Origin: a virus
Reading direction: 5' to 3' (one strand)
DNA: 20,532 nucleotides
Virus record (IMG/VR): IMGVR_UViG_3300009183_000442
Location: 1-20,532 of that record
A program made the position numbers and the translations under genes. Numbering within the stretch: the stretch's first letter is position 1; every line of letters starts with the position of its first letter. Positions 2,674 through 18,841 of the stretch are shown here, piece by piece. Below the pieces are notes generated by a model that was not told the origin of the DNA, made no database searches, and saw nothing but the letters and a program-made list of their open reading frames with translations.

Positions 2674-3357
2674 TCATGTTGTTAGCGCTGATACAAAGGT
2701 TATAGAACCAATAGCTGAGGGAACTGCGGGGTATGCCATAGGGGTTGTTTGGGCTGCTTGGTAGAAAATATAGTTGCCAACTCTTGTAGTAGCGTTAGCC
2801 GCCTGATCCGTACCCCACCAAAGCCCAACATTATCCCCAGCATGTAACGGAAATACTACCTCTGAATAGCCACAAATATATGCCGGAACACCAACGCTTT
2901 TACGAGCTGGCAAACTAAAAATAGTAGATGAACTAGCTATATCTGATCCATTCGTTCTTAACCAAACAACAGAATCATGCTGGGCATTATCATTGTTAGC
3001 AAATTGAAGGCTATAGGTAATCTTATATATGCCAGAAACCTCTGCAGTTGCCGTGCTATTAGCGTTTAATGTAAAGCCAGAGCCATTGCTTAAAGTGTTC
3101 CACAACACTATTGTTGCTGTATTGTTAGCAGTTGCGTATTGTGCGGTGGTATCTTGTGCCGCAATAAACGGAAACCTTAAATATGAACCACCATTTGTGC
3201 CACCAACCCCTGATGCAAAGTTATCAAGCTGGTTAAAGTATAGGCGTAATACGTTCGTAAATTGATCTTGATATTGCTGGGAATAGTCTACCGGACCGAT
3301 AGGTAAGTTCGGTGCTTTTGGCGGTATTAATGCCCCTGATTTTAAATCAACTGGCAT
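2674..3357 (-). CDS. Fibre-like virion protein with probable C1q-like beta-sandwich domain
   Basis: The product is 227 residues. The start ATG overlaps the stop of the upstream gene (TAATG at 3359-3355), suggesting coupled translation. Residues 14-46 form an N-terminal module ending in NVLRLYFNQLDN, a motif I recognise from many phage virion proteins, probably used for attachment or oligomerisation. Residues 58-204 look like a jelly-roll: alternating beta segments, GIYKITYSLQF, then VVWLRTNGSDI, and an AGDNVGLWW segment, as in C1q/TNF-like trimeric domains. The C-terminus (PSAIGSITFVSAL) is also common in phages. I infer a trimeric head or tail decoration or host-contact protein. The assignment rests on motif pattern, not on a search. 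Confidence 0.75.
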   Translation of the reverse strand: MPVDLKSGALIPPKAPNLPIGPVDYSQQYQDQFTNVLRLYFNQLDNFASGVGGTNGGSYLRFPFIAAQDTTAQYATANNTATIVLWNTLSNGSGFTLNANSTATAEVSGIYKITYSLQFANNDNAQHDSVVWLRTNGSDIASSSTIFSLPARKSVGVPAYICGYSEVVFPLHAGDNVGLWWGTDQAANATTRVGNYIFYQAAQTTPMAYPAVPSAIGSITFVSALTT

Positions 3358-5510
3358 TAACGTCGTCCATCCGGTTTAATATCAATGCGTGGGGTACCCA
3401 TCTGCCAAGACACTCCTAACCCATCAGAGTAGACTCTCATAGCCATTTGGCGACCACGAAGACGGGTATATACTTGTCCTGTAAACTCTTGAACCGTATA
3501 TTCAGGAACATTAGTAAAATTGTTGGCGCTTTGGACGGGGTTTAAATCTGCCGAGCCATAGTTTGTACCGCTGTTTTGGCGTGGACGCAATTGCATCGTA
3601 ACGCTAGGCTGGTTAACATTTGACCCGTTAAAGTTAATATCGGGCAACATTCTCCAGACATAGCCAAAGTTATGACCATCTCCAATGTCAAAGTCAGAAG
3701 ACTGGACATAAGATACTATTGGCAAAGTGGTTGCAGTAGACCCATCATCGCTGCCAAGTTCATGATACACAATAGTTCCTGTTGGATTTCCAAGGTCATC
3801 AGCACCATTAATAAATGCACCCATAGGATTTATTCTAATACCAGAGTCTAACCATGAAGTGCGATTTAAAGAACCGTAATACCACACACGATCTAAGTAG
3901 TTATAGACAACATACTTGTCAACAACCGTGCTGTTTACTGAGCAATAGAACCACCAAATTTCATTAAACCCTTCATTGGTTCCACAAGTTACCTGCCAAG
4001 ATTGGTCTTTGTTAATGTCGGAAAATACATATTGACGCAGTGCAGAAGGAAGCGTTTCTACACGACCAGAATACATGTAGAACTTATCTGTACCCATCCA
4101 GTAAGTAACGTTGTTTACAGTAATTACTGCGTTTGGACCCATAATAGAAATGTTATCCATTAATACAGTAAATCCCCAAACATAGGGAGGCCCAAGATAC
4201 TGCATAGAATACAGGGTTGAATCTGTATATACCAAAATCTCTTGACGAGTATTAATTGAGGTAACAATATAAGAACCATGAGATAGGCGGAATTCGCCTG
4301 CCTGATTAGTGATTTCAGGAACCCATTGATATGGGTCTTCTTGGTCAGACCAACGCACCAGCATAGGATCAAATGGAGTTAATGGCTCTCCAACAGCATA
4401 AGAATTAGCACCCATAGCGATAACAAACCGCTGAATATCAGAAGCCACAACTTCGTTTGTTACATTTGGAACCCACTGCCCACTAGTAGCTACCGCTACA
4501 TTAGCTAGAGCCGATAGTTTTTGACCTCTAAACTGTGTACCTAAAGCAGCATCCCAATAATATATTTGTCCGCCACGAGGCGCAAAGATTAAATCTTCGC
4601 CATAGTTATCTGCAGACCACAGGCGTAATTGAGAACCTACTGTTTGAGGCGCAGCATTGCCCCATCCGTAGAAACCCCAAGGAGCAGCGCCCCAGCCGTT
4701 GCCTAATGTAAATACATCCAAACCAACTGGAACTAAGTATTCCACAGTAATGTTGTTACCGCCACCGCCGTTTACTTTAGATGTAGTAAAAGTAATATTA
4801 CTTAAATTATTGTCTGCAGTAGTTAAAGCTGGTGCATACCAATAGCTTGAATTATATTCAAATACCTGATGTTCTTGGTTAAGGACATTTGCCGTTAAAC
4901 CACCAACTGCTGTGCAGTTAGATAAAATTAAAAAGTCTCTAGAGTTAGAGATATTATTAGCATCAAAAAACTGAAAATATCCGCTTGCTATGTTAGCGCC
5001 AGCAGTATGCGTAGCAGCATTTGTGTTGTTAAAACCACGAATACAATTAACAGCTACATTTGATGTAATGCTGTTGTAATAAATCTGCTCACTATCAATC
5101 TTCATTACACCTGCTTGTGGCGCAAAATAAGCGGCATTTGTTAACGAGATTGTAGTTGTATTGATTGTGACATTAGATACTAATGTTGTAAATCCAGTAG
5201 AGATCGTATTGTTATAGGTTGCTCTATCAACAATAGGAGTAATATCATAATAGTACCCACCAGATTCAATATAAAACTTAAGATTTGTGCCAATACCAAG
5301 GTAGTTGTATCCAACTAAAGTAGCCCAATTCCAAATAGAACGAGCAACACCTAAGAATTTATTTGCGCTTAAACGCAGCCAGCCGCCAATCTTCTCTGGA
5401 AAACCAGAACGAAAACGAATCTTATCACCGTCAAAGTAACCACCTTCGTTAGAGTAGTCCGTACCTTCTCGGTTTAATCCTGGTCTTAACTGTATCTTTT
5501 GTAACGGCAT
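3357..5510 (-). CDS. Tail hub/nozzle or tail-stabilisation protein (P22 gp10 / T7 gp12-like role)
   Basis: The product is 717 residues. The N-terminus (PLQKIQLRPGLNREGTDY, then GDKIRFRSGFPEKIGGW) is the typical opening of a large phage protein often annotated as phage stabilisation protein or tail nozzle. The body has the alternating Trp/Tyr/Gly-rich short repeats expected of a beta-propeller: WSADNYGEDLIF, NEIWWFYCSVNS, YNYLDRVWYYGSLNR. The C-terminus has SGTNYGSADLNP and TRLRGRQMAMRVYSDG. Residues 104-176 are an inserted domain that also occurs in the adaptor gene at 17906-18841. The gene starts two bases after the endolysin stop codon begins, with GGAAG upstream. Such a protein would extend the tail tube below the adaptor. 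The placement with P22 gp10 or T7 gp12 is by analogy and only moderately sure. Confidence 0.75.
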   Translation of the reverse strand: MPLQKIQLRPGLNREGTDYSNEGGYFDGDKIRFRSGFPEKIGGWLRLSANKFLGVARSIWNWATLVGYNYLGIGTNLKFYIESGGYYYDITPIVDRATYNNTISTGFTTLVSNVTINTTTISLTNAAYFAPQAGVMKIDSEQIYYNSITSNVAVNCIRGFNNTNAATHTAGANIASGYFQFFDANNISNSRDFLILSNCTAVGGLTANVLNQEHQVFEYNSSYWYAPALTTADNNLSNITFTTSKVNGGGGNNITVEYLVPVGLDVFTLGNGWGAAPWGFYGWGNAAPQTVGSQLRLWSADNYGEDLIFAPRGGQIYYWDAALGTQFRGQKLSALANVAVATSGQWVPNVTNEVVASDIQRFVIAMGANSYAVGEPLTPFDPMLVRWSDQEDPYQWVPEITNQAGEFRLSHGSYIVTSINTRQEILVYTDSTLYSMQYLGPPYVWGFTVLMDNISIMGPNAVITVNNVTYWMGTDKFYMYSGRVETLPSALRQYVFSDINKDQSWQVTCGTNEGFNEIWWFYCSVNSTVVDKYVVYNYLDRVWYYGSLNRTSWLDSGIRINPMGAFINGADDLGNPTGTIVYHELGSDDGSTATTLPIVSYVQSSDFDIGDGHNFGYVWRMLPDINFNGSNVNQPSVTMQLRPRQNSGTNYGSADLNPVQSANNFTNVPEYTVQEFTGQVYTRLRGRQMAMRVYSDGLGVSWQMGTPRIDIKPDGRR
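4983..5201 (-). other. Inserted domain shared with the 311-aa adaptor
   Basis: Encodes residues 104-176 of the 717-aa protein. Key positions are TTISLT, AGVMKIDSEQIYY, NCIRGFNNTNAATH. The same pattern appears at 18233-18436 in an otherwise unrelated protein. It looks like a compact beta-rich module placed in a loop. Confidence 0.6.
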
Positions 5511-7191: not shown

Positions 7192-7404
7192 CTACCAAGT
7201 AATGCCAATAACAGGCACGGAAGTAACTGCAACTGCTACATGTTGTTCAGGGTTAGATAAATCGGCACCACAATCATTGCATACTAGTGCCACCAATTCG
7301 GCTTCATCTACATCTCGATTGCAGTTTGGGCAAAGGATTTCTATTTTAGTTGCGCAATCCGCATCTTTGCCGGGAATATCTTGGGCTTGAGTTTCTATAA
7401 TCAT
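7192..7404 (-). CDS. Small zinc-ribbon protein with hydrophobic C-terminal tail
   Basis: The product is 70 residues. Two CxxC knuckles, C25-P-N-C28 and C42-N-D-C45, are 13 residues apart, a classic zinc ribbon. The last 16 residues (about 55-70) are hydrophobic and end in Trp. The start overlaps the stop of the upstream glycine-rich fibre gene (ATGA at 7404-7401) and the stop is one base before the holin start, so all three are probably translated together. The role is unknown. Zinc ribbons in phages serve DNA, RNA or protein contacts; the position at the fibre/lysis boundary gives no clear hint. The tail is too short and Pro-broken to be a confident membrane anchor. Confidence 0.75.
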   Translation of the reverse strand: MIIETQAQDIPGKDADCATKIEILCPNCNRDVDEAELVALVCNDCGADLSNPEQHVAVAVTSVPVIGITW

Positions 7405-8825
7405 GCTGTGTAAGTTCCAGATCCAGTAAATTTTACATAGGTATAAGAACCGCCGCTTGTAACGGCTGGGCTTCCGGTTACAGTTCCAGAATAGTTAACT
7501 GTTGGAATCTTTAGAATAACTACACCAGTACCACCATTAGCACCAACACCACCGGAGTCACCTATAACTCCACCACCGCCACCGCCCCCTAAGTTTGCAC
7601 CTCCAGCAACCGGATGCGCTCCAACTCTAATACCACCTCCACTACCTCCGCCACCAACTCCGCCAGTGCCAGCAGTACCAGATCCGCCACCTCCGCCACC
7701 ACCATAGGCTACAGATGCGCCTGATGTACTGTTATATGTACCAGCTCCACCAGCTCCACCAGTGGCCTCTTCTGCAACTCCAGTAGCACTACCACCTAAT
7801 CCAGAATTACCACCACCGCCACCGCCACCGTCAAAGTTACCGTTACCACCATTATTACCTTGACCAGACGTACCAGATCCGCCATTGGCCCGTGCGCCAC
7901 CGCCACCGCCTGATGCACCAGTGCCTCCGTTTGCTTCCGAGTTACCGCCGGCACCACCACCTAATCCAGTTCCTTGACCAACCAATGAAGAAGATGTACC
8001 TGTGCCACTTGTAACACCACCAGCACCAACAGTTGCTGTATATACACCGGCTGGAGAAGCAGTAAATGATCCAGCAGTTAAACCACCGCCACCACCTCCA
8101 CCAGCCTGTGGATTACCAGCTTGACCGCCACCGCCACCACCGCCAACAACAAGAAATTCAATTGTGTATTGGCCTTGAGGAGCCGTTATAAAGCGTAACC
8201 ATACGCCATTTGCATAGCCTTCATATATTTGAGATTCACTGTTGTAACGCAATAATCCATTTTGTCCTGTAGCAGCACGAGATGCGGTGTTTCCAGTTGG
8301 TAAAAAGATTTGCCGAGTACTTGAGTTGGCGTATATGTTTTCGCTGAAAGAAGCATTTTTTAACACTACTAAGTTTTTTCCTACAGAAGCATTACCAGTA
8401 ACAGTTAAGTCACCATCAATATAGTTAAACTGTGTAGCGCTAAAAAAATCGGTTCCATTACAGAAGATTACTTCGCTTGCAGCATTTGCAATAGCAACGC
8501 CGTTTCCAGAAGCAGTTTTAATTGTTACTGTAGCATTTGAAAAGTTACGAACAATATAGGTCTTTTCTACTGCTGGAGCAATAACATTGCACGGGGCAGC
8601 TAATAAACCCCCAAAAACTAATACAGCGCTACGAGCTTGATCTGGAAGTCCGTTATAGTCAGTTAAAGTATAGTTACCTCCAGTTAAGGTAATTGACTCA
8701 ACGCCAGCAATAGCAGCCTCTAATAAGGTTCCAAGGTTGTTATTGGTGGTTGTACCCCATGTACCGGCTTGTTCACCGTTACCGATAAGCTCTAATCCGA
8801 GCGATGTTGAATAGGTTGATGGCAT
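7401..8825 (-). CDS. Glycine-rich tail fibre / adhesin (474 aa)
   Basis: The start ATG at 8825 has AAAGGA upstream. Residues 1-60 contain a module I know from many phage fibres: STSLGLELIGNGEQAGTWGT then NNNLGTLLEAAIAG. Residues 60-135 are beta-rich (QARSAVLVFGG, TYIVRNFSNATVTIK). Residues 178-210 hold the GLLRYNSESQIYEGYANGVW module shared with other fibres in this locus. Residues 223-433 are very Gly-rich, with long runs of Gly separated by short variable loops. The last 41 residues end in GSGTYTA, again shared. Gly-rich segments of this kind form polyglycine type II helix sandwiches in the phage S16 gp38 adhesin, whose loops bind the receptor. The same fold here is inference. This is the last and longest of four glycine-rich paralogues, and the only one with the LELIGNGEQAGTW head. 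Confidence 0.85.
   Translation of the reverse strand: MPSTYSTSLGLELIGNGEQAGTWGTTTNNNLGTLLEAAIAGVESITLTGGNYTLTDYNGLPDQARSAVLVFGGLLAAPCNVIAPAVEKTYIVRNFSNATVTIKTASGNGVAIANAASEVIFCNGTDFFSATQFNYIDGDLTVTGNASVGKNLVVLKNASFSENIYANSSTRQIFLPTGNTASRAATGQNGLLRYNSESQIYEGYANGVWLRFITAPQGQYTIEFLVVGGGGGGGQAGNPQAGGGGGGGLTAGSFTASPAGVYTATVGAGGVTSGTGTSSSLVGQGTGLGGGAGGNSEANGGTGASGGGGGARANGGSGTSGQGNNGGNGNFDGGGGGGGNSGLGGSATGVAEEATGGAGGAGTYNSTSGASVAYGGGGGGGSGTAGTGGVGGGGSGGGIRVGAHPVAGGANLGGGGGGGVIGDSGGVGANGGTGVVILKIPTVNYSGTVTGSPAVTSGGSYTYVKFTGSGTYTA
7527..8159 (-). repeat. Low-complexity glycine-coding tract (adhesin 1)
   Basis: On the plus strand this reads as repeated CCACC/CCGCC units; on the coding strand it is G-rich GGN-GGN runs coding for Gly-rich loops. 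Similar tracts occur at 10062-10739, 11695-12357 and 13518-14024, which makes recombination and slippage between them plausible. Confidence 0.8.
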
Positions 8826-8835
8826 TTATTTTCCT

Positions 8836-9933
8836 TTATGCTGCTATAAGTTCCCAATTTGTGGTTTCTAAGTCATCAATTTGACTCCAACCAGATCCTG
8901 AATCATCGTCTATATCTGTCCAGCCAGGGTCAGGCACATCTGGAATCTGACCCCAAACTAGTACTTGCCCGATTATACCTCGTGCTTGAACGCCTGTTAA
9001 GTAGATATTAGCATTGGCTACAGTTGTTACTGTACCTATATATCCAATGGCCTCAACACCTGTAACACGGATATTTTGGGTTAATCTAACAGTTACTTGC
9101 CCAATCTGTCCTATGCCTTGAGCGCCCGTTAAATAGATTGCTGCGCTTGCTGTAGTACTAACTGACCCAACCTGTCCTTGAGCCTGAACGCCTGTTAGGT
9201 AGACATTAGCATTTGCTGCGGTGGTTACCGTGCCAACCTTTCCTACAGCCTGAACGCCTGTTAGGTAGACATTTGCCCCCGCAGTAGCAGAAGCCGTTCC
9301 TAGTTGAGTAACCCCTACAACGCCTGTTACATTGACTACGGCATCTCCTGTGACGCTAGTAGTTCCAGTTTGCCCTACGGCTTGTACGCCTGTTACATTG
9401 ACCCCAGAGCCTTGTTTAACCGTTACGGTACCTACTTGTGCTGGGGCTTGAACCCCAGTAAGATTTACTGTTGCACCTGCGGTAGTTGTGGCAGTACCAA
9501 CTTGTCCTACGCCCTGTACGCCAGTAAGATTTACTACTGCGCCAGCTTGAGTGGTTACAGTGCCTACATATCCTACCGCTTGAACGCCCGTTAAATTAAC
9601 TACCGCAGTACCTGTAACGCTTGCAGTACCTAAATATCCAACTGCCTGAACCCCAGTTAAGAATACATTTGCTGAAGCAGCGGTTGTAACAGTATCTACC
9701 TGACCAACAGCTTGAACACCAGTTAAAAGAACACCAACACCTTCTTTAACTGTTAAAGTCCCGGTTTGCCCAACTGCTTGAACGCCAGTTACATAAGCAT
9801 TGGCTGCGCCAGTAGCATTAGCAGTGCCTAGATAGCCAACCGCCTGAACGCCAGTAACATTAACATTTACTGAAACAGAACCTGCACCAGTATCTGCAAA
9901 GGGGGCCGAAGCGAAAGGTACGAATCCGAACAT
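8836..9933 (-). CDS. Virion/tail protein of fourteen exact 22-residue repeats
   Basis: The 365-residue product has a 22-residue leader (MFGFVPFASAPFADTGAG...), fourteen repeats of exactly 22 residues with no insertion or deletion (residues 23-330), and a 35-residue acidic tail. The repeat consensus is roughly LTGVQAVGQVGTVTT followed by a short variable link; Gly at the TG and VG positions is nearly invariant. The period and the alternating Val/Thr/Gly pattern suggest a beta-solenoid or a regular beta-stack. The tail repeats a Trp-Thr-Asp-Ile-Asp-Asp / Trp-Ser-Gln-Ile-Asp-Asp motif and ends WELIAA. Proteins with TGVQAxGxVG repeats occur in other aquatic phage tail regions, without known function as far as I know. 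Its setting between two glycine-rich fibres suggests a fibre shaft or spike. The SD is weak; translation is probably coupled to the fibre gene that ends two bases upstream. Confidence 0.85.
   Translation of the reverse strand: MFGFVPFASAPFADTGAGSVSVNVNVTGVQAVGYLGTANATGAANAYVTGVQAVGQTGTLTVKEGVGVLLTGVQAVGQVDTVTTAASANVFLTGVQAVGYLGTASVTGTAVVNLTGVQAVGYVGTVTTQAGAVVNLTGVQGVGQVGTATTTAGATVNLTGVQAPAQVGTVTVKQGSGVNVTGVQAVGQTGTTSVTGDAVVNVTGVVGVTQLGTASATAGANVYLTGVQAVGKVGTVTTAANANVYLTGVQAQGQVGSVSTTASAAIYLTGAQGIGQIGQVTVRLTQNIRVTGVEAIGYIGTVTTVANANIYLTGVQARGIIGQVLVWGQIPDVPDPGWTDIDDDSGSGWSQIDDLETTNWELIAA
8944..9867 (-). repeat. Tandem array of fourteen 66-bp coding repeats
   Basis: The array is uninterrupted and encodes residues 23-330 of the repeat protein. 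Units are 66 bp each (14 x 66 = 924 bp). Amino-acid positions T-G-V-Q-A and the central G are conserved while third codon positions vary (cctgttaagtaga, ccagttaaaaga, cctgttacattga and so on), so the copies are old and kept by selection rather than freshly duplicated. Confidence 0.9.
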
Positions 9934-9935
9934 AA

Positions 9936-11306
9936 TTAGGCCGTGTAGGTGCCAGAGGCGTTATAAGTTAAGATTGTATTTGATCCGTTTGTTGTAACGG
10001 TTGGAGATCCTGTTGTAGTGCCTGAGTAACTTGCCGTTGGGATGGAAACAATAACAACACCAGAGCCGCCGTTACCACCAGCAATGGCAGTTGAGCCACC
10101 TGTTCCAGAACCACCACCGCCAGCGTTACCATAGTTTACTGTTCCGTTAGAACCATTTTGCGAATCGTTAGCACCGCCGCCAGAACCACCAGAGCCACGA
10201 GTTACAGAACTTCCAGTAATAGAAGATGCTACACCATTACCGCCAGCAGGATGGGTATTGTCGTTACCAGTTCCAGCGTTTGCTGTTCCTTGGCTACCGG
10301 CTCCACCACCACCAGAACCATTTGTTCCCTCAGACGCATTGCCTGTGTTTTGACCGCCAGCATAACCTTGGTTAGCTGTTCCAGCGCCACCGCTACGAGT
10401 CGTATCTACAGCATCAGCAGTACCACCACCGCTACCACCAGAATTTCCTACAGTTGCACTAGGTGATGCTGCGGTACCACCACCACCACCGCCAGTTGAT
10501 GAAATACTGCTAAATACTGAAGTTCCTCCGTCTGATCCTTTATTTCCCTGTCCAGTACCACCAGAACCACCAGCACCTACTGTAATTGTATAAACTGTTC
10601 CAGCAGTTAGAGTTAAGGAACTTTCGGCACCAGCACCTCCACCAGATGTTCCTGCAGATGTTCTATATCCACCGGCACCACCACCGCCAGCACCACGACC
10701 CGAAGGCGCACCAGCGCCACCGCCGCCACCACCGCCAGCAATTACTAAAAAGTTTGCTGTGTACTGACTAACAACTGGACCAAGTGAATTAGATGTTATG
10801 GCATTTGCTGTACCCGCTGCATTTATAGCAGTTACATTACAGGTCATGTTTGCGCCGTTTTGAGTGGATGTTAAGACAAACGTACTGGATGTTGCGTTAG
10901 TAATATTGGTTGTATTAGCTCGCCATTGATAACCATAGCTGGTTGGAGTATTTGACCAAGTACCAGTAGTTGATGATAGGGTTTGTCCTACAGTAACGGT
11001 GCCTGAGATAACAGGAGCAACACTATTTACCGGTAAAAATGTTTGAGTCAAACTAGACCAGTTCCCAGTTGAATAAGCTTCAAACACACTATTAGATGTG
11101 TTGTATCGCAACATCCCTGACGATGCAGTTGGTCTATTTGCTGTTGTTCCTGCTGGTACGATAAGCGCAGCGGTTGATGCACAGTTAATATTTTGCGTAC
11201 TGTCTATTAACAAAGCATTAGTATTTGCGGTTTGGAATGCAACTGAAGCGGTTAAGTCAACCGTTTGGGTGATTCCAGAGTTGTTGGCGTTAATAATGGC
11301 AGTCAT
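9936..11306 (-). CDS. Glycine-rich tail fibre / adhesin with Ig-like domain (456 aa)
   Basis: I choose ATG 11306 because it overlaps the upstream stop (TAATG at 11308-11304); a start at 11321 would add only five residues inside the previous gene. Residues 1-85 form the N-terminal module shared with the next two upstream genes (AFQTANTNALLIDS, then PAGTTANRP and GMLRYNTSNSVFEAYSTGNW). Residues 95-178 look like a bacterial Ig-like domain: PVISGTVTVGQTLSSTTGTW, YGYQWRANTTNITNATSSTF, MTCNVTAINAAG. Residues 190-415 are Gly-rich with variable loops. The last 41 residues are the shared GVVIVSIPTASYSGTTTG module ending SGTYTA. It probably is a distal, receptor-contacting fibre. It is the only paralogue here with an Ig-like spacer. 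Confidence 0.85.
   Translation of the reverse strand: MTAIINANNSGITQTVDLTASVAFQTANTNALLIDSTQNINCASTAALIVPAGTTANRPTASSGMLRYNTSNSVFEAYSTGNWSSLTQTFLPVNSVAPVISGTVTVGQTLSSTTGTWSNTPTSYGYQWRANTTNITNATSSTFVLTSTQNGANMTCNVTAINAAGTANAITSNSLGPVVSQYTANFLVIAGGGGGGGAGAPSGRGAGGGGAGGYRTSAGTSGGGAGAESSLTLTAGTVYTITVGAGGSGGTGQGNKGSDGGTSVFSSISSTGGGGGGTAASPSATVGNSGGSGGGTADAVDTTRSGGAGTANQGYAGGQNTGNASEGTNGSGGGGAGSQGTANAGTGNDNTHPAGGNGVASSITGSSVTRGSGGSGGGANDSQNGSNGTVNYGNAGGGGSGTGGSTAIAGGNGGSGVVIVSIPTASYSGTTTGSPTVTTNGSNTILTYNASGTYTA
10062..10739 (-). repeat. Low-complexity glycine-coding tract (adhesin 2)
   Basis: Repeated CCACC/CCGCC on the plus strand, coding for residues 190-415 of the Ig-bearing adhesin. Loop segments between the Gly runs differ from those in the other three tracts. 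Confidence 0.8.
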
Positions 11307-11572
11307 TAGAAAACACCCCAAGAGTTGTTAGCATAACCTTCTACCTTAGATAAAGTAGTGTTATATCTCATCATGCCATTAACTGGAGAACTGGGTCTTT
11401 GTGCAGTGGTTCCAGATGGTAAAGTTAAATATCCAGTTGTTGGAAATGAAACAATATTAGATGTAATGTTGCATAAAATTGCTGTTGTGTTAGCAGTTTG
11501 AATAGCTAAAGATCCAGATTTATCAACAGATTCCGTCATTCCAGAAGAAGAGAAATTAATATTAGTCGTCAT
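11306..11572 (-). CDS. Orphan fibre head module (88 aa) without glycine-rich domain
   Basis: The product matches the first 85-90 residues of the flanking fibres: AIQTANTTAILC, then LPSGTTAQRPSSPVNGMMRY and VEGYANNSW. It stops three residues after the conserved Trp, where the neighbours continue into Ig-like or Gly-rich parts. The start overlaps the upstream fibre stop (ATGA at 11572-11569) and the stop overlaps the next start (TAATG), so it is embedded as a separate, cotranslated gene. It could be a free trimerisation or docking subunit, a competitor that tunes fibre composition, or the surviving head of a fibre that lost its tip. The clean stop and intact frame argue against simple decay, but do not exclude it. 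Confidence 0.82.
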   Translation of the reverse strand: MTTNINFSSSGMTESVDKSGSLAIQTANTTAILCNITSNIVSFPTTGYLTLPSGTTAQRPSSPVNGMMRYNTTLSKVEGYANNSWGVF

Positions 11573-12666
11573 GCTGTGTATGTTCCAGACTGCGTATACT
11601 TCACAATAGTGTTAGATCCAGATGTCGTTACTGTTGGAGTTCCTGTTACAGTTCCTGTGTAACTTGCAGTAGGTATAGACAAAATAACAACCCCTGAGCC
11701 ACCAGCACCACCTGTTCCGGGCGCATTACTAATTGAAGATGCGCCACCGCCGCCACCGCCAAGATTTGTTGTACCAGCCGTTCCATTTTTTGACGTAGTA
11801 TTTGCTCCTGTACCGCCGCCACCTGAGCCTCCTGTGCCACCACCAGTAGTTGCTCCAGAGCCACCGCCGCCACCGCCTGCATAGGTTACAGATGTTCCTG
11901 TAATTGATGAAGCATTGCCAGCTCCACCATTACCCGCTGCAGAAGGTGATGTTGTACCGTTTCCACCAACGGCAGAAGCACCTCCACCACCGCCCCCACC
12001 ACCATCACCACCAGCGCTAAGACCACTACCTCCAGCATTACCTTGACCAGATGTTCCTGCTGCACCAGATTCTCCGGGAGAGGTTTGAGAATACCCTCCA
12101 CCACCTGAGCCACCAACTGTTGCTGTAGCCCCACTAGAACCACCTCCACCACCTATGGCTATAGTTAATCCAGTAATTGAAGAATTACCGCCATTACCAG
12201 CGGCACCGTTATTTCCACCAGTTCCGCCAGCTCCAACAGTAATTGTATAAACTGATTTTGAAGATAATGTTGTAGTTCCAGTTAAAAAACCACCAGCACC
12301 GCCACCGCCCATACCCCTACCACCGCCAGTTGATACTGAGCCACCACCACCTCCACCGGCAACAATTAAGTATGAAGCTGTATAGACACCCCCAACAATA
12401 TATGACCAAGTGTTATTGGCGTAGACTTCAAGACCACTGGATGTTGTGTTGTACCGAATTGATCCATTGACTGGTGATACTGGTCTTTGTGCTTCTGTAC
12501 CTACTGGCAATAAAACTGCTGTGTTTGCAGTGCAGTTGATGGTTTGACTTGATCCTATAACAACTGCATTAGATCCATTGGTTTGAAACGCAAGTGTAGA
12601 TGTGTTGTCGCCCGATGTAACGAGCAAGCCAACTTGTGGATCAAGAACAGCATTTATGGATGACAT
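11569..12666 (-). CDS. Glycine-rich tail fibre / adhesin (365 aa)
   Basis: The N-terminal module (residues 1-90: TLAFQTNGSNAVVIGSSQ, RPVSPVNGSIRYNTTSSGLE, VYANNTW) is followed directly by a Gly-rich region (104-324) and the shared 41-residue end (GVVILSIPTASYTGTVTG to SGTYTA). There is no Ig-like spacer. The SD is weak (CTTGAACATAG before ATG), and the preceding gene ends six bases upstream. By analogy with glycine-rich phage adhesins, the variable loops between Gly runs should make the receptor contact. The last 22 bases plus the next start codon are almost identical to those of the adhesin ending at 7401. Confidence 0.85.
   Translation of the reverse strand: MSSINAVLDPQVGLLVTSGDNTSTLAFQTNGSNAVVIGSSQTINCTANTAVLLPVGTEAQRPVSPVNGSIRYNTTSSGLEVYANNTWSYIVGGVYTASYLIVAGGGGGGSVSTGGGRGMGGGGAGGFLTGTTTLSSKSVYTITVGAGGTGGNNGAAGNGGNSSITGLTIAIGGGGGSSGATATVGGSGGGGYSQTSPGESGAAGTSGQGNAGGSGLSAGGDGGGGGGGGASAVGGNGTTSPSAAGNGGAGNASSITGTSVTYAGGGGGGSGATTGGGTGGSGGGGTGANTTSKNGTAGTTNLGGGGGGASSISNAPGTGGAGGSGVVILSIPTASYTGTVTGTPTVTTSGSNTIVKYTQSGTYTA
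11695..12357 (-). repeat. Low-complexity glycine-coding tract (adhesin 3)
   Basis: Repeated CCACC/CCGCC on the plus strand, coding for residues 104-324 of the 365-aa adhesin; G-rich on the coding strand. Confidence 0.8.
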
Positions 12667-12672
12667 CTATGT

Positions 12673-13071
12673 TCAAGGTGTAGGCATTAAAACCCAAGAT
12701 TGGGTTGCTTCATCCCAATAATAAGAACCACCATCTGTAGGATAAGGTACTGGAGCTTCCCATAGCCAAGTGGAAGTATTTAAAATCCATGATGGGTAAG
12801 GCTGGGGTGCATAAAAAACATCATCATATGAGTTATATGTATATCCAATACCTGCGTAGTTAGCCCGTAAAGGAATGCCACCATCAGGAGTACGGGGTTC
12901 AGCAGGAGGACTTGGTGCGTAATGCACATTGCCGTAAGTGTTGTAAGAGGTTTGTTTCCATAGGCCGGGCAGATCAGCAACAAAAGATTCGTCCGCAGAT
13001 AATACTTGAGCTACGGTAAATGTTGATGAATTTGCATTTGCGGTTGGAAAACATTGTGCGTAATAAGACAT
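12673..13071 (-). CDS. Short tail-fibre-associated protein with YAPQPYPSW motif
   Basis: I choose ATG 13071 because it overlaps the stop of the upstream chaperone-like gene (TAATG at 13073-13069); a start at 13083 would add four residues. The 132-residue product has an aromatic and Pro-rich C-terminal half: NYAGIGYTYNSYDDVFYAPQ, PYPSWILN, WLWEAPVPYPTDGG, YYWDEATQSWVL. I recognise the VFYxPQPxPSWxLN / WxAPxPxP / YxWDE pattern from small proteins of cyanophages and other aquatic phages, usually near tail fibre genes. The function is not known to me; a fibre tip cap, baseplate attachment or chaperone role would all fit the place. Confidence 0.75.
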   Translation of the reverse strand: MSYYAQCFPTANANSSTFTVAQVLSADESFVADLPGLWKQTSYNTYGNVHYAPSPPAEPRTPDGGIPLRANYAGIGYTYNSYDDVFYAPQPYPSWILNTSTWLWEAPVPYPTDGGSYYWDEATQSWVLMPTP

Positions 13072-13478
13072 TATGAACTCCATTGTTCGGTTGGTGTTGT
13101 AGGAAATACTGGATCTACTACTGGGTTTACTGCGTATCCTCTAACTATACTTCTATAGGCAATAAATTCAGCTTGGTTTATCAGATATGGGTTTGACTTT
13201 AATGGGTCAGCCACATCAGGAATAGATGTCCAATCTGTTGAATTTAAAGTTGCTGTTGCTGTTTGTTTGCATTGAGCAATAAGTTCTTCAGGAGTTGGGG
13301 CCGGTACTGGGGGAGCAATAAATTGCCCATCAACATAAGTCCATCCCGGACCTGCTGTATCGCTTTGAACGGCAATAATAGGTTCATCAAACCCCGGAGG
13401 AGGGTTAGAGGGCGGCGTGTCATAATCAATAACGTTGATGACGTTAATACCATCAATGATTGCATATCTTTGTGTCAT
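13071..13478 (-). CDS. Tail fibre assembly chaperone-like protein A
   Basis: The 135-residue product starts at ATG 13478 with AGGAA upstream. Residues 1-60 are variable (WTYVDGQFIAPP). Residues 61-135 resemble the C-terminal domain of phage tail assembly chaperones: PEELIAQCKQ, ATLNSTDWTSIPDVAD, FIAYRSIVRGYAVNP, and a final FPTTPTEQWSS. The same domain ends the gene at 14344-14688. Such proteins help fold and trimerise fibres encoded next to them. In lambda- and Mu-like phages the chaperone usually follows its fibre; here one lies just before the YAPQPYPSW gene and the 365-aa adhesin, and just after another adhesin. Which fibre it serves cannot be read from the sequence. Confidence 0.75.
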   Translation of the reverse strand: MTQRYAIIDGINVINVIDYDTPPSNPPPGFDEPIIAVQSDTAGPGWTYVDGQFIAPPVPAPTPEELIAQCKQTATATLNSTDWTSIPDVADPLKSNPYLINQAEFIAYRSIVRGYAVNPVVDPVFPTTPTEQWSS

Positions 13479-13487
13479 AATAAATTC

Positions 13488-14342
13488 CTAGAAATAAGCA
13501 GTGACAATAATTACACCTGCTGCACCTGCGCCACCTGTATTCCCGCTTGTTCCTGCGCCACCAGCAGTACCACCAGCACCAACAGCATAAGAATAAGTTG
13601 AGGAAGGGGTAGTTACAATTGCTTTAAGATAACCACCAGCGCCTGCGCCTGCACCAGCATAAGTTCCAGCAGAGTTCATTGATCCACCAGCACCACCAGC
13701 GCCAGTATTTGCCGTTCCTGCGCCACCATTAGTATTGTAATAAGCACAAGTTCCTGCGCCTCCAAACGGATTCATGCCCCCAGCGCCTCCTGACTGAGAA
13801 ACAGATGTTGCTCCAGAACCAAACCCACTTCCACCAGTTAACGCTAAACCAGATGCACCAGCACCTATTGTTCCAGTTCCACCACCAGAAGCAATATTTG
13901 GATTTGTAGTTGCGCTGCCGCCAGTACAAGTTAAAAATGACGAACCGAATGTGGTGCTTCCACCAGCGCCGCCACCAGTTTGATTTCCTGTTCCAGAACC
14001 GCCGCCACCGCCTCCGCCACCAGCCATTTCAACTACTAAATACTTAGCGCCTGTTGGAGTTGTATAGTTTCCAGAACTACTTGTGTATACGGTTACGTTT
14101 GGGTTTGCATGGGATGTAATAGTCGTGCTATCAGAGAATGTAATACCAGCCGCAGGAACAGTAACCCCACCAGCAAAAGTAGCTGCTTGTGTGCTAGAAA
14201 TTGTTAACGCATTTACGCCGCCAGTTGAAATAGCAATAGCATTAGCCGATGGATAATAAACGCCCGTTGAGGTTCCGCCAGTACCACCTTGAACCGCTGG
14301 GCTTCCTACAGCATTATCTGTTCCGTTAAGAATAAGCGTCAT
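13488..14342 (-). CDS. Glycine-rich tail fibre / adhesin (284 aa)
   Basis: I choose ATG 14342, which lies one base after the stop of the upstream gene; a start at 14390 would put 48 bases inside it. The N-terminal part differs from the other adhesins: GTDNAVGSPAVQGGTGGTST, then VNALTISSTQAATFAGGVTV, a module shared with the gene at 14685-15302. Residues of about 83-106 form a short beta segment (YTTPTGAKYLVVEMAGGG). Residues 107-275 are Gly-rich. The C-terminus ends AGVIIVTAYF and lacks the GTYTA end seen in the other three adhesins. It is therefore a mosaic: head of one fibre type and body of another. The role is probably receptor binding. Confidence 0.85.
   Translation of the reverse strand: MTLILNGTDNAVGSPAVQGGTGGTSTGVYYPSANAIAISTGGVNALTISSTQAATFAGGVTVPAAGITFSDSTTITSHANPNVTVYTSSSGNYTTPTGAKYLVVEMAGGGGGGGGSGTGNQTGGGAGGSTTFGSSFLTCTGGSATTNPNIASGGGTGTIGAGASGLALTGGSGFGSGATSVSQSGGAGGMNPFGGAGTCAYYNTNGGAGTANTGAGGAGGSMNSAGTYAGAGAGAGGYLKAIVTTPSSTYSYAVGAGGTAGGAGTSGNTGGAGAAGVIIVTAYF
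13518..14024 (-). repeat. Low-complexity glycine-coding tract (adhesin 4)
   Basis: CCACC/CCAGC-rich on the plus strand, coding for residues 107-275 of the 284-aa adhesin. It has longer Ala/Ser/Thr/Asn spacers than the other tracts. Confidence 0.75.
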
Positions 14343-14343
14343 A

Positions 14344-14688
14344 TTAAGAACTCCATTGTTCAGTTGGCGCAGGAGGAAATACAGGATCAACTACAGGGTT
14401 AACAGCATAGTTGCGAACAACAGCTCTATATTGTTTAAATTCTGTTTGATTCATTAGATAAGGCGTATATGTAGGATCTGCAACATCGGCGATAGAAGTC
14501 CAGTCTGTAGCGTTTAATATCGTAATAGCTTGAGTTTTACAAGAATTTTTATCCGCTTGGGCTTGAACCGCAACCAAATCATAAGTTACTTCATTGCCGT
14601 TAACATCATAAGCAACATCGCCACGAACCACTACTACTGTTGGATATAGTTGAAATATAGCTTGTGTTTGTTCTGTTGTTAAACTCAT
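14344..14688 (-). CDS. Tail fibre assembly chaperone-like protein B
   Basis: The 114-residue product is a diverged paralogue of the gene at 13071-13478. Their last 55 or so residues align without gaps over most of the length: TILNATDWTSIADVADP, MNQTEFKQYRAVVRNYAVNP, and the identical final EQWSS. The first 50 residues differ (MSLTTEQTQAIFQLYP, YDVNGNEVTYDLVAVQAQAD). The start overlaps the upstream fibre gene stop (ATGA at 14688-14685). It sits between the 205-aa fibre gene and the 284-aa glycine-rich adhesin. The call rests on the DWTsLpD / YR / W pattern of tail assembly chaperones; no search was possible. Confidence 0.75.
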   Translation of the reverse strand: MSLTTEQTQAIFQLYPTVVVVRGDVAYDVNGNEVTYDLVAVQAQADKNSCKTQAITILNATDWTSIADVADPTYTPYLMNQTEFKQYRAVVRNYAVNPVVDPVFPPAPTEQWSS

Positions 14689-16235: not shown

Positions 16236-16934
16236 TTAAGTAACTTGAACACGAGCTTGACCATTACGATAAGCGTCTTGGCGCTCAAGCCCATCTCCAA
16301 GACGTTTTAATTGGGCTAGCGCCTCATTGTATTTGCTATTATACGTGGCTAACATGTCTGTTTCACCTTTCATATAAGTATAGGCTTCAACTAAAGAGCC
16401 ATAAAGTAAGGCAGGACTATAGTTGTCACCAAGCCATGAAGAACCAGCATCAACGATCGACTCTGGATAATAAAAGTAATGCAGCTCAGCGCCATAGCTA
16501 GCGTCTGGTGTTGGGCCAAGAATGAATGTTAATTCATTTGGATCATTCAATCTAGAGCCAAACAAAGCGTAATATCGGGGTAAACCCGTAGCTGTTGGAT
16601 CTGGATAAGCTTGGCGGATAAAGTTAACATCTTTGTTTAGCAAGTACTCATAATTACCATCGGCCTGAATAACCGCTAACGAATAGGTAGAAAGGTAGTC
16701 ATTTGGGCAGGCTAAGTATTTGCTAGTGCTAGAACAGTTACCAGTAACGTTTTTTCTCAAAGAAGGAATCTGCACCGTATTATAGATGCGCTTCTCCGCT
16801 TGCTGAATGAACGTATTAATCTGAGTGGTTACATTAACCGTACTCGTATTACCGCCAGACAGCTCTACATACGTATCAGGGAATATATTCTCTGTATACG
16901 CTTGTACTTGCTGAAAAAGTTCGTTGTAATCCAT
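16236..16934 (-). CDS. Phage adaptor (head-tail neck) protein, 232 aa
   Basis: The product opens MDYNELFQQVQAYTENIFPD, with FIQQAEKRIYNTVQIPSLRK, YLLNKDVNFIRQAYPDP, ELTFILGPTPDASYGAELHY and FYYPESIVDAGSSWLGDN. The C-terminal helix pair (LLYGSLVEAYTYMKGE, YNSKYNEALAQLKRLGDG) is typical. This is the phage adaptor family that forms a ring under the portal. The length is normal. Its start shares a base with the stop of the next gene upstream (TAATG at 16936-16932). A second adaptor-like gene lies at 17906-18841, so the neck may have two rings, as in T7-like and P22-like viruses with separate tail accessory proteins. The assignment is by remembered family pattern. Confidence 0.85.
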   Translation of the reverse strand: MDYNELFQQVQAYTENIFPDTYVELSGGNTSTVNVTTQINTFIQQAEKRIYNTVQIPSLRKNVTGNCSSTSKYLACPNDYLSTYSLAVIQADGNYEYLLNKDVNFIRQAYPDPTATGLPRYYALFGSRLNDPNELTFILGPTPDASYGAELHYFYYPESIVDAGSSWLGDNYSPALLYGSLVEAYTYMKGETDMLATYNSKYNEALAQLKRLGDGLERQDAYRNGQARVQVT

Positions 16935-17477: not shown

Positions 17478-17903
17478 CTAAGTTATACTAACCGTTACTG
17501 TACCAAGTTGTGTGTTGCCTATCAAGTCATTTGGCGTTAAAGCATTGTCAAACAACCTTGAACCACCAACTGGCGCCCAGCCCCATTGGAAAATCCTACT
17601 ACCCATATCTGGGTTTCCTAATCCATCTGGCCCAATACCAGTTAAATTAATCTGCAATCCATTAGTACCAGACTGCCAATAGCTTACATCAGGACGAGGC
17701 TCCCGAACCGCTTGCGGGTCGTTTACCGGATACATACCCAATTGTAACTGAGGATGGTCAGGATCCCAACATGCTTGGCAAACTTTAATCTTATATGGCT
17801 TGGTTTTTACCGTTTGTGTCCGAAGCTCTTTTAACATGAATCTTTGAGCGCATCTGTCACATTCGGCAATTGCCCACTTGCCCGAAGCGAACTGATTCGG
17901 CAT
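17478..17903 (-). CDS. Conserved phage zinc-ribbon protein of the neck region
   Basis: The 141-residue product has C15-D-R-C18 and C42-Q-A-C45 knuckles, then WDPDHPQLQLG and DPQAVREPRPD. The order CDRC / VCxxCWDxDHPQL / DPQALRxPRPD is recurrent in phage genomes beside adaptor genes. The remainder (WGWAPVGGSRLF, NDLIGNTQLGTVTVSIT) has a beta-rich, Gly/Asn-rich look, as if a small virion domain were fused to a zinc ribbon. Start ATG 17903 follows the adaptor stop by three bases. The function is unknown; a structural zinc fold in the neck or tail is the simplest reading. Confidence 0.8.
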   Translation of the reverse strand: MPNQFASGKWAIAECDRCAQRFMLKELRTQTVKTKPYKIKVCQACWDPDHPQLQLGMYPVNDPQAVREPRPDVSYWQSGTNGLQINLTGIGPDGLGNPDMGSRIFQWGWAPVGGSRLFDNALTPNDLIGNTQLGTVTVSIT

Positions 17904-17905
17904 TG

Positions 17906-18841
17906 TTAACGGCCTCCTCCACCATAGAACGACATCCTAGGTACAAAACGAATCGGAGCTTTCTCACGATCTTCGTCTGCTGCCAATTGGAACTGTTGCT
18001 CATAATCTGACTTCAGCATTGGGATACGATTCATATCCACATCTGGAAGCTTTGTTGCCAACTGATAAGCCAATCCAGCAACCATACAAGGAATAAAGCG
18101 GAATGGAATGTCTTGTACATACACACCTGAGCCAGCATCTTGGATGCGGCGCAAGCGATAATAAACGAATAGGTACTGGTCGCCAGGAGCATTCGGAGTC
18201 GGCCATACATTAATACAGGGTAAGTTCTGCACTGTAACAGGAGCATCAGCAAGATGAGCTGCGGCAGTCGTATTGTTCTGACCACGGGCGCAGTTTAAAA
18301 GCTGGTTTCCACTAACATTAGGATAGCTAATTGTCTCTGCGCCAATCTTAATAAATCCAGCAGAAGCTAAGTTATTTGTAGATGTTAGGGTAATAGTGGT
18401 ATCAGAAGAGCTTACATTAGCGCTTAAAAGGGCGTCTGAGAGGTTTTCTTGACCTGACTGACGGTTGATATACACCTGAATCGGGCGCCCCTGTGCGAGC
18501 TTATTAGGCAGGCTCATGTAGGTCGGCTCAGCAATACGGCTGATATTGATGTCAATCTGGTTAGAAGTTCCATTGTTTTGGCGGATAACGGTATCCATAA
18601 GGTCAATAGTATCTACAGGAATAGGATACATAGCTTGACCTGTAACCATTGGGATTATGCCCTGCTCTACTGTCCAGAGGTTAATTCCACGGTTAGCCCA
18701 TTCAATGGTCAATAGGTTTAAAGAGCGACGGGCTGTTTTAAAGTCATAGCCAGTACGCAGTTCTTTGCCGCATCTCTCGAATGCCTCTTCGATTAGATCA
18801 TTTACATCTAGATTAAATGCGGTTGTTCCAGTTGTTGCCAT
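17906..18841 (-). CDS. Tail accessory / adaptor protein (T7 gp11 or P22 gp4-like role), with inserted domain
   Basis: The 311-residue product has the family opening FNLDVNDLIEEAFERCGKEL, RTGYDFKTARRSLNLLTIEW and ANRGINLWTVEQ, and a C-terminal half with INVWPTPNAPGDQYLFVYYR, FIPCMVAGLAYQLATK and a charged helix to the end. This is a widespread neck/tail tubular type protein in aquatic podoviruses. Residues 136-203 form an extra beta-rich insert, placed just before the VWPTP segment, that also occurs in the 717-aa tail protein. The end MSFYGGGGR is Gly-rich. The start overlaps the stop of the upstream gene by one base (TAATG at 18843-18839). The gene would connect portal and tail. Confidence 0.85.
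   Translation of the reverse strand: MATTGTTAFNLDVNDLIEEAFERCGKELRTGYDFKTARRSLNLLTIEWANRGINLWTVEQGIIPMVTGQAMYPIPVDTIDLMDTVIRQNNGTSNQIDINISRIAEPTYMSLPNKLAQGRPIQVYINRQSGQENLSDALLSANVSSSDTTITLTSTNNLASAGFIKIGAETISYPNVSGNQLLNCARGQNNTTAAAHLADAPVTVQNLPCINVWPTPNAPGDQYLFVYYRLRRIQDAGSGVYVQDIPFRFIPCMVAGLAYQLATKLPDVDMNRIPMLKSDYEQQFQLAADEDREKAPIRFVPRMSFYGGGGR
18233..18436 (-). other. Inserted domain shared with the 717-aa tail protein
   Basis: Encodes residues 136-203 of the 311-aa adaptor: key positions TTITLT, AGFIKIGAETISY, NCARGQNNTTAAAH. It aligns with residues 104-176 of the protein at 3357-5510. Adaptors of this type normally run from the RQ segment straight to the VWPTP segment, so I read it as an insertion. 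Confidence 0.6.

What the first reader, a model, noticed from the sequence alone, without database searches (positions are those of the whole stretch)
18233..18436. Same inserted domain in two different neck/tail proteins
Residues 136-203 of the 311-aa adaptor and 104-176 of the 717-aa tail protein share TTIxLT, AGxxKIxxE, NCxRGxNNTxAAxH in the same order, whereas the rest of the two proteins is unrelated. It appears inserted in a loop of both. These proteins sit next to each other in a tail, so the domains may decorate the outer surface or contact one another.
Basis: partly seen in the sequence, partly recalled or inferred. Interest (0 to 1): 0.6.

Follow-up and report, generated by a model that had tools for sequence, protein, structure and literature searches.

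The report
Roaming beta-barrel domain in phage tails
Two different proteins of one short phage tail each carry a copy of the same small barrel-shaped domain, which related phages lack, carry at other sites or carry in other virion proteins, so it is a roaming building block that lets phages re-model the outside of the tail.

Summary
Residues 139-202 of the 311-aa adaptor and 110-174 of the 717-aa nozzle/stabilisation protein align at 45% identity (E 6e-12); the rest of the two proteins is unrelated. It is a true insertion. Half of 165 adaptors and about 70% of 77 nozzles lack it cleanly, and some relatives carry it at another site in the same protein or in a third neck protein. AlphaFold2 models both copies confidently with the same strand order. 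The adaptor copy matches six-stranded beta-barrel domains in solved phage structures (VP1 capsid, JBD30 hub domain VI, LKA1 tailspike insertion domain, Mystique tail tube). A sequence profile independently finds the Chi tail tip and the JBD30 hub. The same domain occurs in cyanomyovirus sheath, neck and baseplate-wedge proteins and has no adequate Pfam model. It is therefore a promiscuous phage structural module, not something specific to these two proteins. Adaptor and nozzle copies occur independently in some genomes, so obligate pairing is unlikely. Most likely role: an extra surface or interface module on the fibre-dock side of the adaptor and the tip side of the nozzle; glycan binding is the main rival. 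The fold is known; its sequence spread and its double use in one neck appear undescribed.

The parts
18233..18436 (-). beta-barrel insertion domain in the adaptor (residues 136-203; best bounds about 132-206 = 18224-18448)
   Evidence: BLASTP E 6e-12 to the nozzle copy; absent from 83 of 165 relatives; model pLDDT about 90; VIA Z 9-10.5 to phage barrels over residues 131-211
17906..18841 (-). 311-aa head-tail adaptor protein (host protein of the insertion)
   Evidence: Pfam SU10_adaptor 34.6 bits, cut-off 27; VIA Z 13.3 to the cyanophage A4 adaptor, 11.5 to T7 gp11
4983..5201 (-). beta-barrel insertion domain in the nozzle protein (residues 104-176), site I
   Evidence: pLDDT about 94
3357..5510 (-). 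717-aa nozzle / P22 gp10-like stabilisation protein (host protein of the insertion)
   Evidence: phrog_3287 E 5e-62; VIA Z 29.6 to the Pa223 tail protein, 26.2-26.7 to SU10 gp17, 23.6 to P22 gp10
4725..4985 (-). native 'tip' domain of the nozzle (about residues 176-262), directly after the inserted barrel; duplicated in tandem in several relatives
   Evidence: comparison with minimal nozzles
17478..17903 (-). 141-aa neck protein; its N-terminal part is related to HTVC027P gp65, which carries the barrel (here it does not)
   Evidence: 32% over 75 aa, E 6e-5

Best explanation
Both segments are copies of one mobile, about 70-residue, six-stranded beta-barrel domain with adjacent ends, so that it can drop into a surface loop without disturbing the host fold (shown by sequence and models). 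In the adaptor it interrupts a hairpin of the beta-domain between helices 2 and 3, which by topology corresponds to the T7/SU10 fibre dock. In the nozzle it precedes the tip domain that leaves the propeller, the region where SU10 carries its Ig-like nozzle domains (both placements inferred). It most likely works as an extra structural interface on the outside of the neck and tip: it props a neighbouring subunit or a fibre/spike root, as the homologous domain VI does in the JBD30 hub and the structurally similar rider does in the K1 lyase. Phages gain, lose and move it between virion proteins by recombination.
For: Homology between the copies. Clean presence/absence and alternative sites: adaptor 129-206 missing in DSL-LC04, HTVC023P, CRP-902 and Pag-Yong1; another adaptor site (85-164) in HTVC027P, plus its third neck protein gp65; nozzle site I (about 103-180) in 20 of 77 and site II (about 217-311) in 3 of 77; Skadi nozzle 513-588. 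Same strand register in two separate models, offset 28-29 residues throughout. Structural matches for the adaptor copy. Profile hits to solved proteins: Chi tail tip E 1.5e-7, JBD30 hub E 0.0035 at residues 494-556, the same stretch as the structural match 479-558. Copies in cyanomyovirus sheath (two in tandem), wedge and neck proteins. Literature: JBD30 domain VI stabilises the baseplate (PMC11445458); K1 rider mutants lose thermal stability (PMC8822698). The same nozzle slot holds a second tip domain in other phages.
Against: No coordinates were available to superpose the two inserts or to place them in a tail complex, so the outward orientation is inferred. The nozzle copy was not matched alone to a known barrel, because propellers fill its hit list. 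Interface function is inferred from relatives only. K1 rider and RcGTA data also point to sugar contact.
Confidence: 0.55

Rival explanations
1. The barrels are glycan-binding decorations that give weak, multivalent (12 + 6 copies) adhesion of the tail to host surface polysaccharide.
For: In the K1 lyase the rider barrel forms part of a polysaccharide pocket (PMC8822698); the RcGTA hub barrel is called oligosaccharide-binding by its similarity to the LKA1 domain (PMC7296036); KP34gp57 barrel residues help binding (PMC10653864). The many surface copies per virion would suit weak avidity (inference).
Against: Binding in those cases depends on the neighbouring beta-helix. Copies in sheath, capsid and tail-tube proteins do not suggest a receptor role. 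No sugar-site motif was tested here.
Confidence: 0.22
2. The adaptor and nozzle barrels contact each other across the two rings and lock the neck.
For: 14 of 16 viral genomes with both genes and at least one copy have both copies; the two proteins are expected to touch in podophage tails (PMC6702177).
Against: Genomes with only one copy exist: adaptor only in G016; nozzle only in G014, HTVC023P, CRP-902 and 023Pt_psg01. Co-occurrence follows one lineage. Stoichiometry 12:6 does not pair one to one.
Confidence: 0.1
3. The barrels are selectively near-neutral passengers: easily tolerated insertions spread by recombination, with no specific role.
For: High turnover of sites and hosts; half of the relatives do without it.
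Against: The representative adaptor copies form one clade and are kept intact across the lineage, and G, E, RG, T and H positions are conserved even between distant copies.
Confidence: 0.13

Closest known systems
Domain VI of the JBD30 baseplate hub (gpJ-like), PDB 8rk3; and the Chi tail-tip protein, PDB 8vjh
   Same: Same barrel by structure (JBD30 Z 9.9, rmsd 2.1, 73 residues, 25% identity) and by sequence profile (JBD30 E 0.0035; Chi E 1.5e-7), sharing the RG..T..H stretch
   Different: There it extends from fibronectin-like domains of a siphophage hub; here it sits in a podophage adaptor and nozzle
Insertion domain of LKA1 gp49 tailspike / K1 lyase 'rider' / AP22 gp54
   Same: Six-stranded beta-barrel inserted in another fold; LKA1 Z 9.4, rmsd 1.9 over 69 residues; AP22 Foldseek probability 0.98
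   Different: Part of polysaccharide-degrading beta-helices; no significant sequence match for LKA1, weak for K1 (E 0.0075)
P22 coat protein I-domain
   Same: Reported by others as structurally similar to the LKA1 and K1 barrels (PMC5701251, PMC8822698)
   Different: Not matched directly here
Promiscuous Ig-like domains of phage structural proteins, including the SU10 nozzle domains
   Same: Works like them: a domain pasted into unrelated virion proteins; SU10 has four Ig-like domains between propeller blades 2 and 3 (PMC9509320)
   Different: Different fold and sequence; no Ig, Big or fn3 Pfam match in 16 copies
Cyanomyovirus sheath, neck and baseplate-wedge proteins (PHROGs 4406, 2885, 708, 11439)
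   Same: Carry one to three copies of the same domain
   Different: Myovirus proteins; the domain there is unannotated

Membership tests
[quoted passage not shown]
   Model of residues 131-211 all-beta, pLDDT about 90; VIA Z 9.3-10.5 to four phage barrels at rmsd 1.7-2.1, above the F1-ATPase crown barrels at about 7
[quoted passage not shown]
[quoted passage not shown]
   Chi E 1.5e-7, JBD30 E 0.0035
LKA1 gp49 insertion domain / K1 rider subgroup | sequence homology | tested here: inconclusive
   LKA1 not found by profile; K1 E 0.0075 over 38 positions
LKA1 gp49 insertion domain / K1 rider subgroup | takes part in polysaccharide binding | not testable with these tools
   needs binding assays
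Ig-like / Big / fn3 phage domains | match to a Pfam model of these families | tested here: not met
   None of 16 copies at E <= 1
Podophage head-tail adaptor (PF24175) | Pfam match above the curated cut-off and the adaptor fold outside the insert | tested here: met
   34.6 bits against 27; Z 13.3 to A4 with 202 of 216 residues aligned
Podophage nozzle / gp10-like protein | beta-propeller nozzle fold | tested here: met
   phrog_3287 E 5e-62; Z 29.6 to Pa223 over 465 residues

The most novel reading that the evidence does not exclude
A single, still unnamed sequence family of barrel domains circulates by recombination among unrelated virion proteins of podo-, myo- and siphophages (adaptor, nozzle, sheath, wedge, neck, hub) and is reused at several sites in one tail as a general-purpose interface, a non-Ig counterpart of the phage Ig-like domains.
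Probability: 0.5. Interest if true: 0.6.

Novelty: new variant of a known kind. Interest (0 to 1): 0.45.

Why it matters
Ig-like domains are the textbook example of a module pasted into unrelated phage proteins. Here is a second module, with a different fold, that can be followed by sequence across podo-, myo- and siphophages, including very abundant aquatic ones, and that has no adequate Pfam model. Because closely related phages differ in whether and where they carry it, its function can be tested by natural comparison and by clean deletion.

Tried and rejected
Intragenomic duplication of one copy into the other gene: neither shown nor excluded. The tree puts adaptor copies in one clade (98/95) and the window-lineage nozzle copies in another (100/96); holding adaptor and nozzle-I copies together is not rejected (p 0.228), and DNA identity is only 53%. 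A first tree mislabelled adaptor rows as nozzle because the nozzle query matched them through the insert; it was redone. Ig-like domain: no Pfam support. Single-sequence phmmer of either protein against the PDB found nothing for the insert; the influenza and PDZ rows of the profile search are chance (E about 0.5 or more). Plasmids: no match. hhalign against SU10 gp11 and gp17 did not give usable alignments, so the dock and tip placements rest on topology. T7 and SU10 adaptors and nozzles as negative controls: no domain. A 16-row domain alignment was too diverse for a collection scan; a 5-row one worked, but its viral hits are mostly adaptors because the first row is the adaptor copy.

Full report
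CHECK. They match at 45% identity over 65 residues, E 6e-12, and nothing else in the two proteins matches. Shuffling controls put the score (127) far above chance (mean 31, maximum 59), and masking the segments drops the rest to the chance level. Inside the window only these two reading frames carry the segment convincingly.

HOST PROTEINS. The 311-aa protein is a head-tail adaptor: it passes the Pfam SU10_adaptor cut-off and its model aligns best with the adaptors of cyanophage A4, Carin 1, T7 and SU10. The 717-aa protein is the P22 gp10 / SU10 gp17 type nozzle: phrog_3287 E 5e-62, VIA Z 29.6 to the Pa223 tail protein and 23.6 to P22 gp10. The window record is a 20.5-kb virus fragment.

IT IS A TRUE INSERTION THAT MOVES. 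In adaptors of DSL-LC04, HTVC023P, CRP-902 and Pag-Yong1 the chain runs straight from residue 128 to about 207 of the window protein. Of 165 adaptors collected, 82 carry the domain and 83 do not. The HTVC027P adaptor carries it at another place (residues 85-164), and the next gene of that phage, whose N-terminal part is related to the 141-aa protein of this window, carries one as well. In nozzles 23 of 77 carry it, 20 at site I (as here) and three at a second site about 110 residues further on. The Skadi nozzle carries it at residues 513-588. Among 23 viral genomes with both genes, 14 have both copies, one has only the adaptor copy, one only the nozzle copy and seven have neither. HTVC023P, CRP-902 and 023Pt_psg01 have only the nozzle copy. 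Several other nozzles have a second copy of the native tip domain in the place where the window nozzle has the barrel, so this loop is a slot for swapping domains.

WHAT THE DOMAIN IS. AlphaFold2 models the insert well in both proteins (pLDDT about 90 and 94), and the strands fall in the same order with a constant offset of 28-29 residues, although the two models came from different alignments. VIA matches residues 131-211 of the adaptor alone with a chain of the VP1 capsid entry (Z 10.5, rmsd 1.7, 72 residues), JBD30 hub residues 479-558 (Z 9.9), the LKA1 tailspike insertion domain (Z 9.4) and the Mystique tail tube (Z 9.3); F1-ATPase crown barrels follow at about 7. A profile of 27 copies finds, by sequence, the Chi tail-tip protein (E 1.5e-7, two places) and JBD30 hub residues 494-556 (E 0.0035), the same place as the structural match. 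Published descriptions call the JBD30 domain a small six-stranded barrel that stabilises the baseplate (PMC11445458), and the LKA1 and K1 barrels six-stranded or barrel-like and similar to the P22 I-domain (PMC5701251 and PMC8822698).

SPREAD. Copies match PHROG families of virion structural proteins, tail fibres and baseplate wedges. One natural copy (HTVC023P) finds 282 phage records, mostly cyanomyoviruses. Reading ten of them shows two tandem copies in the tail sheath of S-SZBM1 and P-TIM40, two to three in wedge proteins and one in neck or VrlC-like proteins. Pfam and NCBIfam have no adequate model for it. The tree has few columns, but the window-type adaptor copies form one clade (98/95), the window-lineage nozzle copies another (100/96), and the HTVC027P adaptor copy groups with cyanophage neck copies (97/88), although a common origin of all adaptor copies is not rejected (p 0.225).

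MECHANISM. Shown: one homologous domain, two host proteins, clean insertion, several sites, wide spread, barrel fold for the adaptor copy. Inferred: in the adaptor it interrupts a hairpin in the beta-domain between helices 2 and 3, which by topology is the fibre dock of T7 and SU10 adaptors (PMC6702177, PMC9509320); in the nozzle it precedes the tip domain that leaves the propeller, near where SU10 has its Ig-like nozzle domains. Both places should face outward, so the domain most likely adds an interface for fibre roots or neighbouring subunits. Glycan binding is the strongest rival, because the K1 rider and the RcGTA hub barrel are described as sugar-contacting. A fixed partnership between the two copies is unlikely, since single copies occur.

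VERDICT. The kind (a promiscuous phage structural domain) and the fold are known; what seems new is the sequence family that links adaptor, nozzle, sheath, wedge, neck and hub proteins, and its double use in one neck. I found no paper that describes this in the searches made, which covered open-access papers only.

Noticed in passing
16236-16934 and 17906-18841 (-): The window encodes two proteins of the SU10_adaptor Pfam family (E 1.9e-22 for the 232-aa one, 3.3e-8 for the 311-aa one); only the latter carries the barrel. Which of them touches the nozzle is not settled.
   Followed up: partly
7401-14390 (-): A run of fibre-like genes with related N-terminal parts; three have glycine-rich C-terminal domains (Pfam Gly_rich_2) and a fourth (13488-14390) is similarly glycine-rich. 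They look like a family of alternative poly-glycine adhesins.
   Followed up: partly
8836-9933 (-): 365-aa protein made of about a dozen repeats of the form 'xNVTGVQAVGxxGTVT', with no Pfam or PHROG match.
   Followed up: no
L118, L125, L130, L142 and others (nozzle genes): Nozzles without the barrel often carry a second, tandem copy of the native tip domain, and others (L159, L164, L169) carry a different insert of about 75-78 aa at a third site: the nozzle is a hotspot of domain insertion.
   Followed up: partly
L319:2158-3612 (contig of a Lokiarchaeota MAG): A 484-aa protein with two copies of the barrel on a contig binned as an Asgard archaeon; it may be a virus or a mis-binned contig.
   Followed up: no
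L305:2497-5271 and L314:2464-5235: Tail sheath proteins of cyanomyoviruses S-SZBM1 and P-TIM40 carry two tandem copies of the barrel near residues 94-246.
   Followed up: yes
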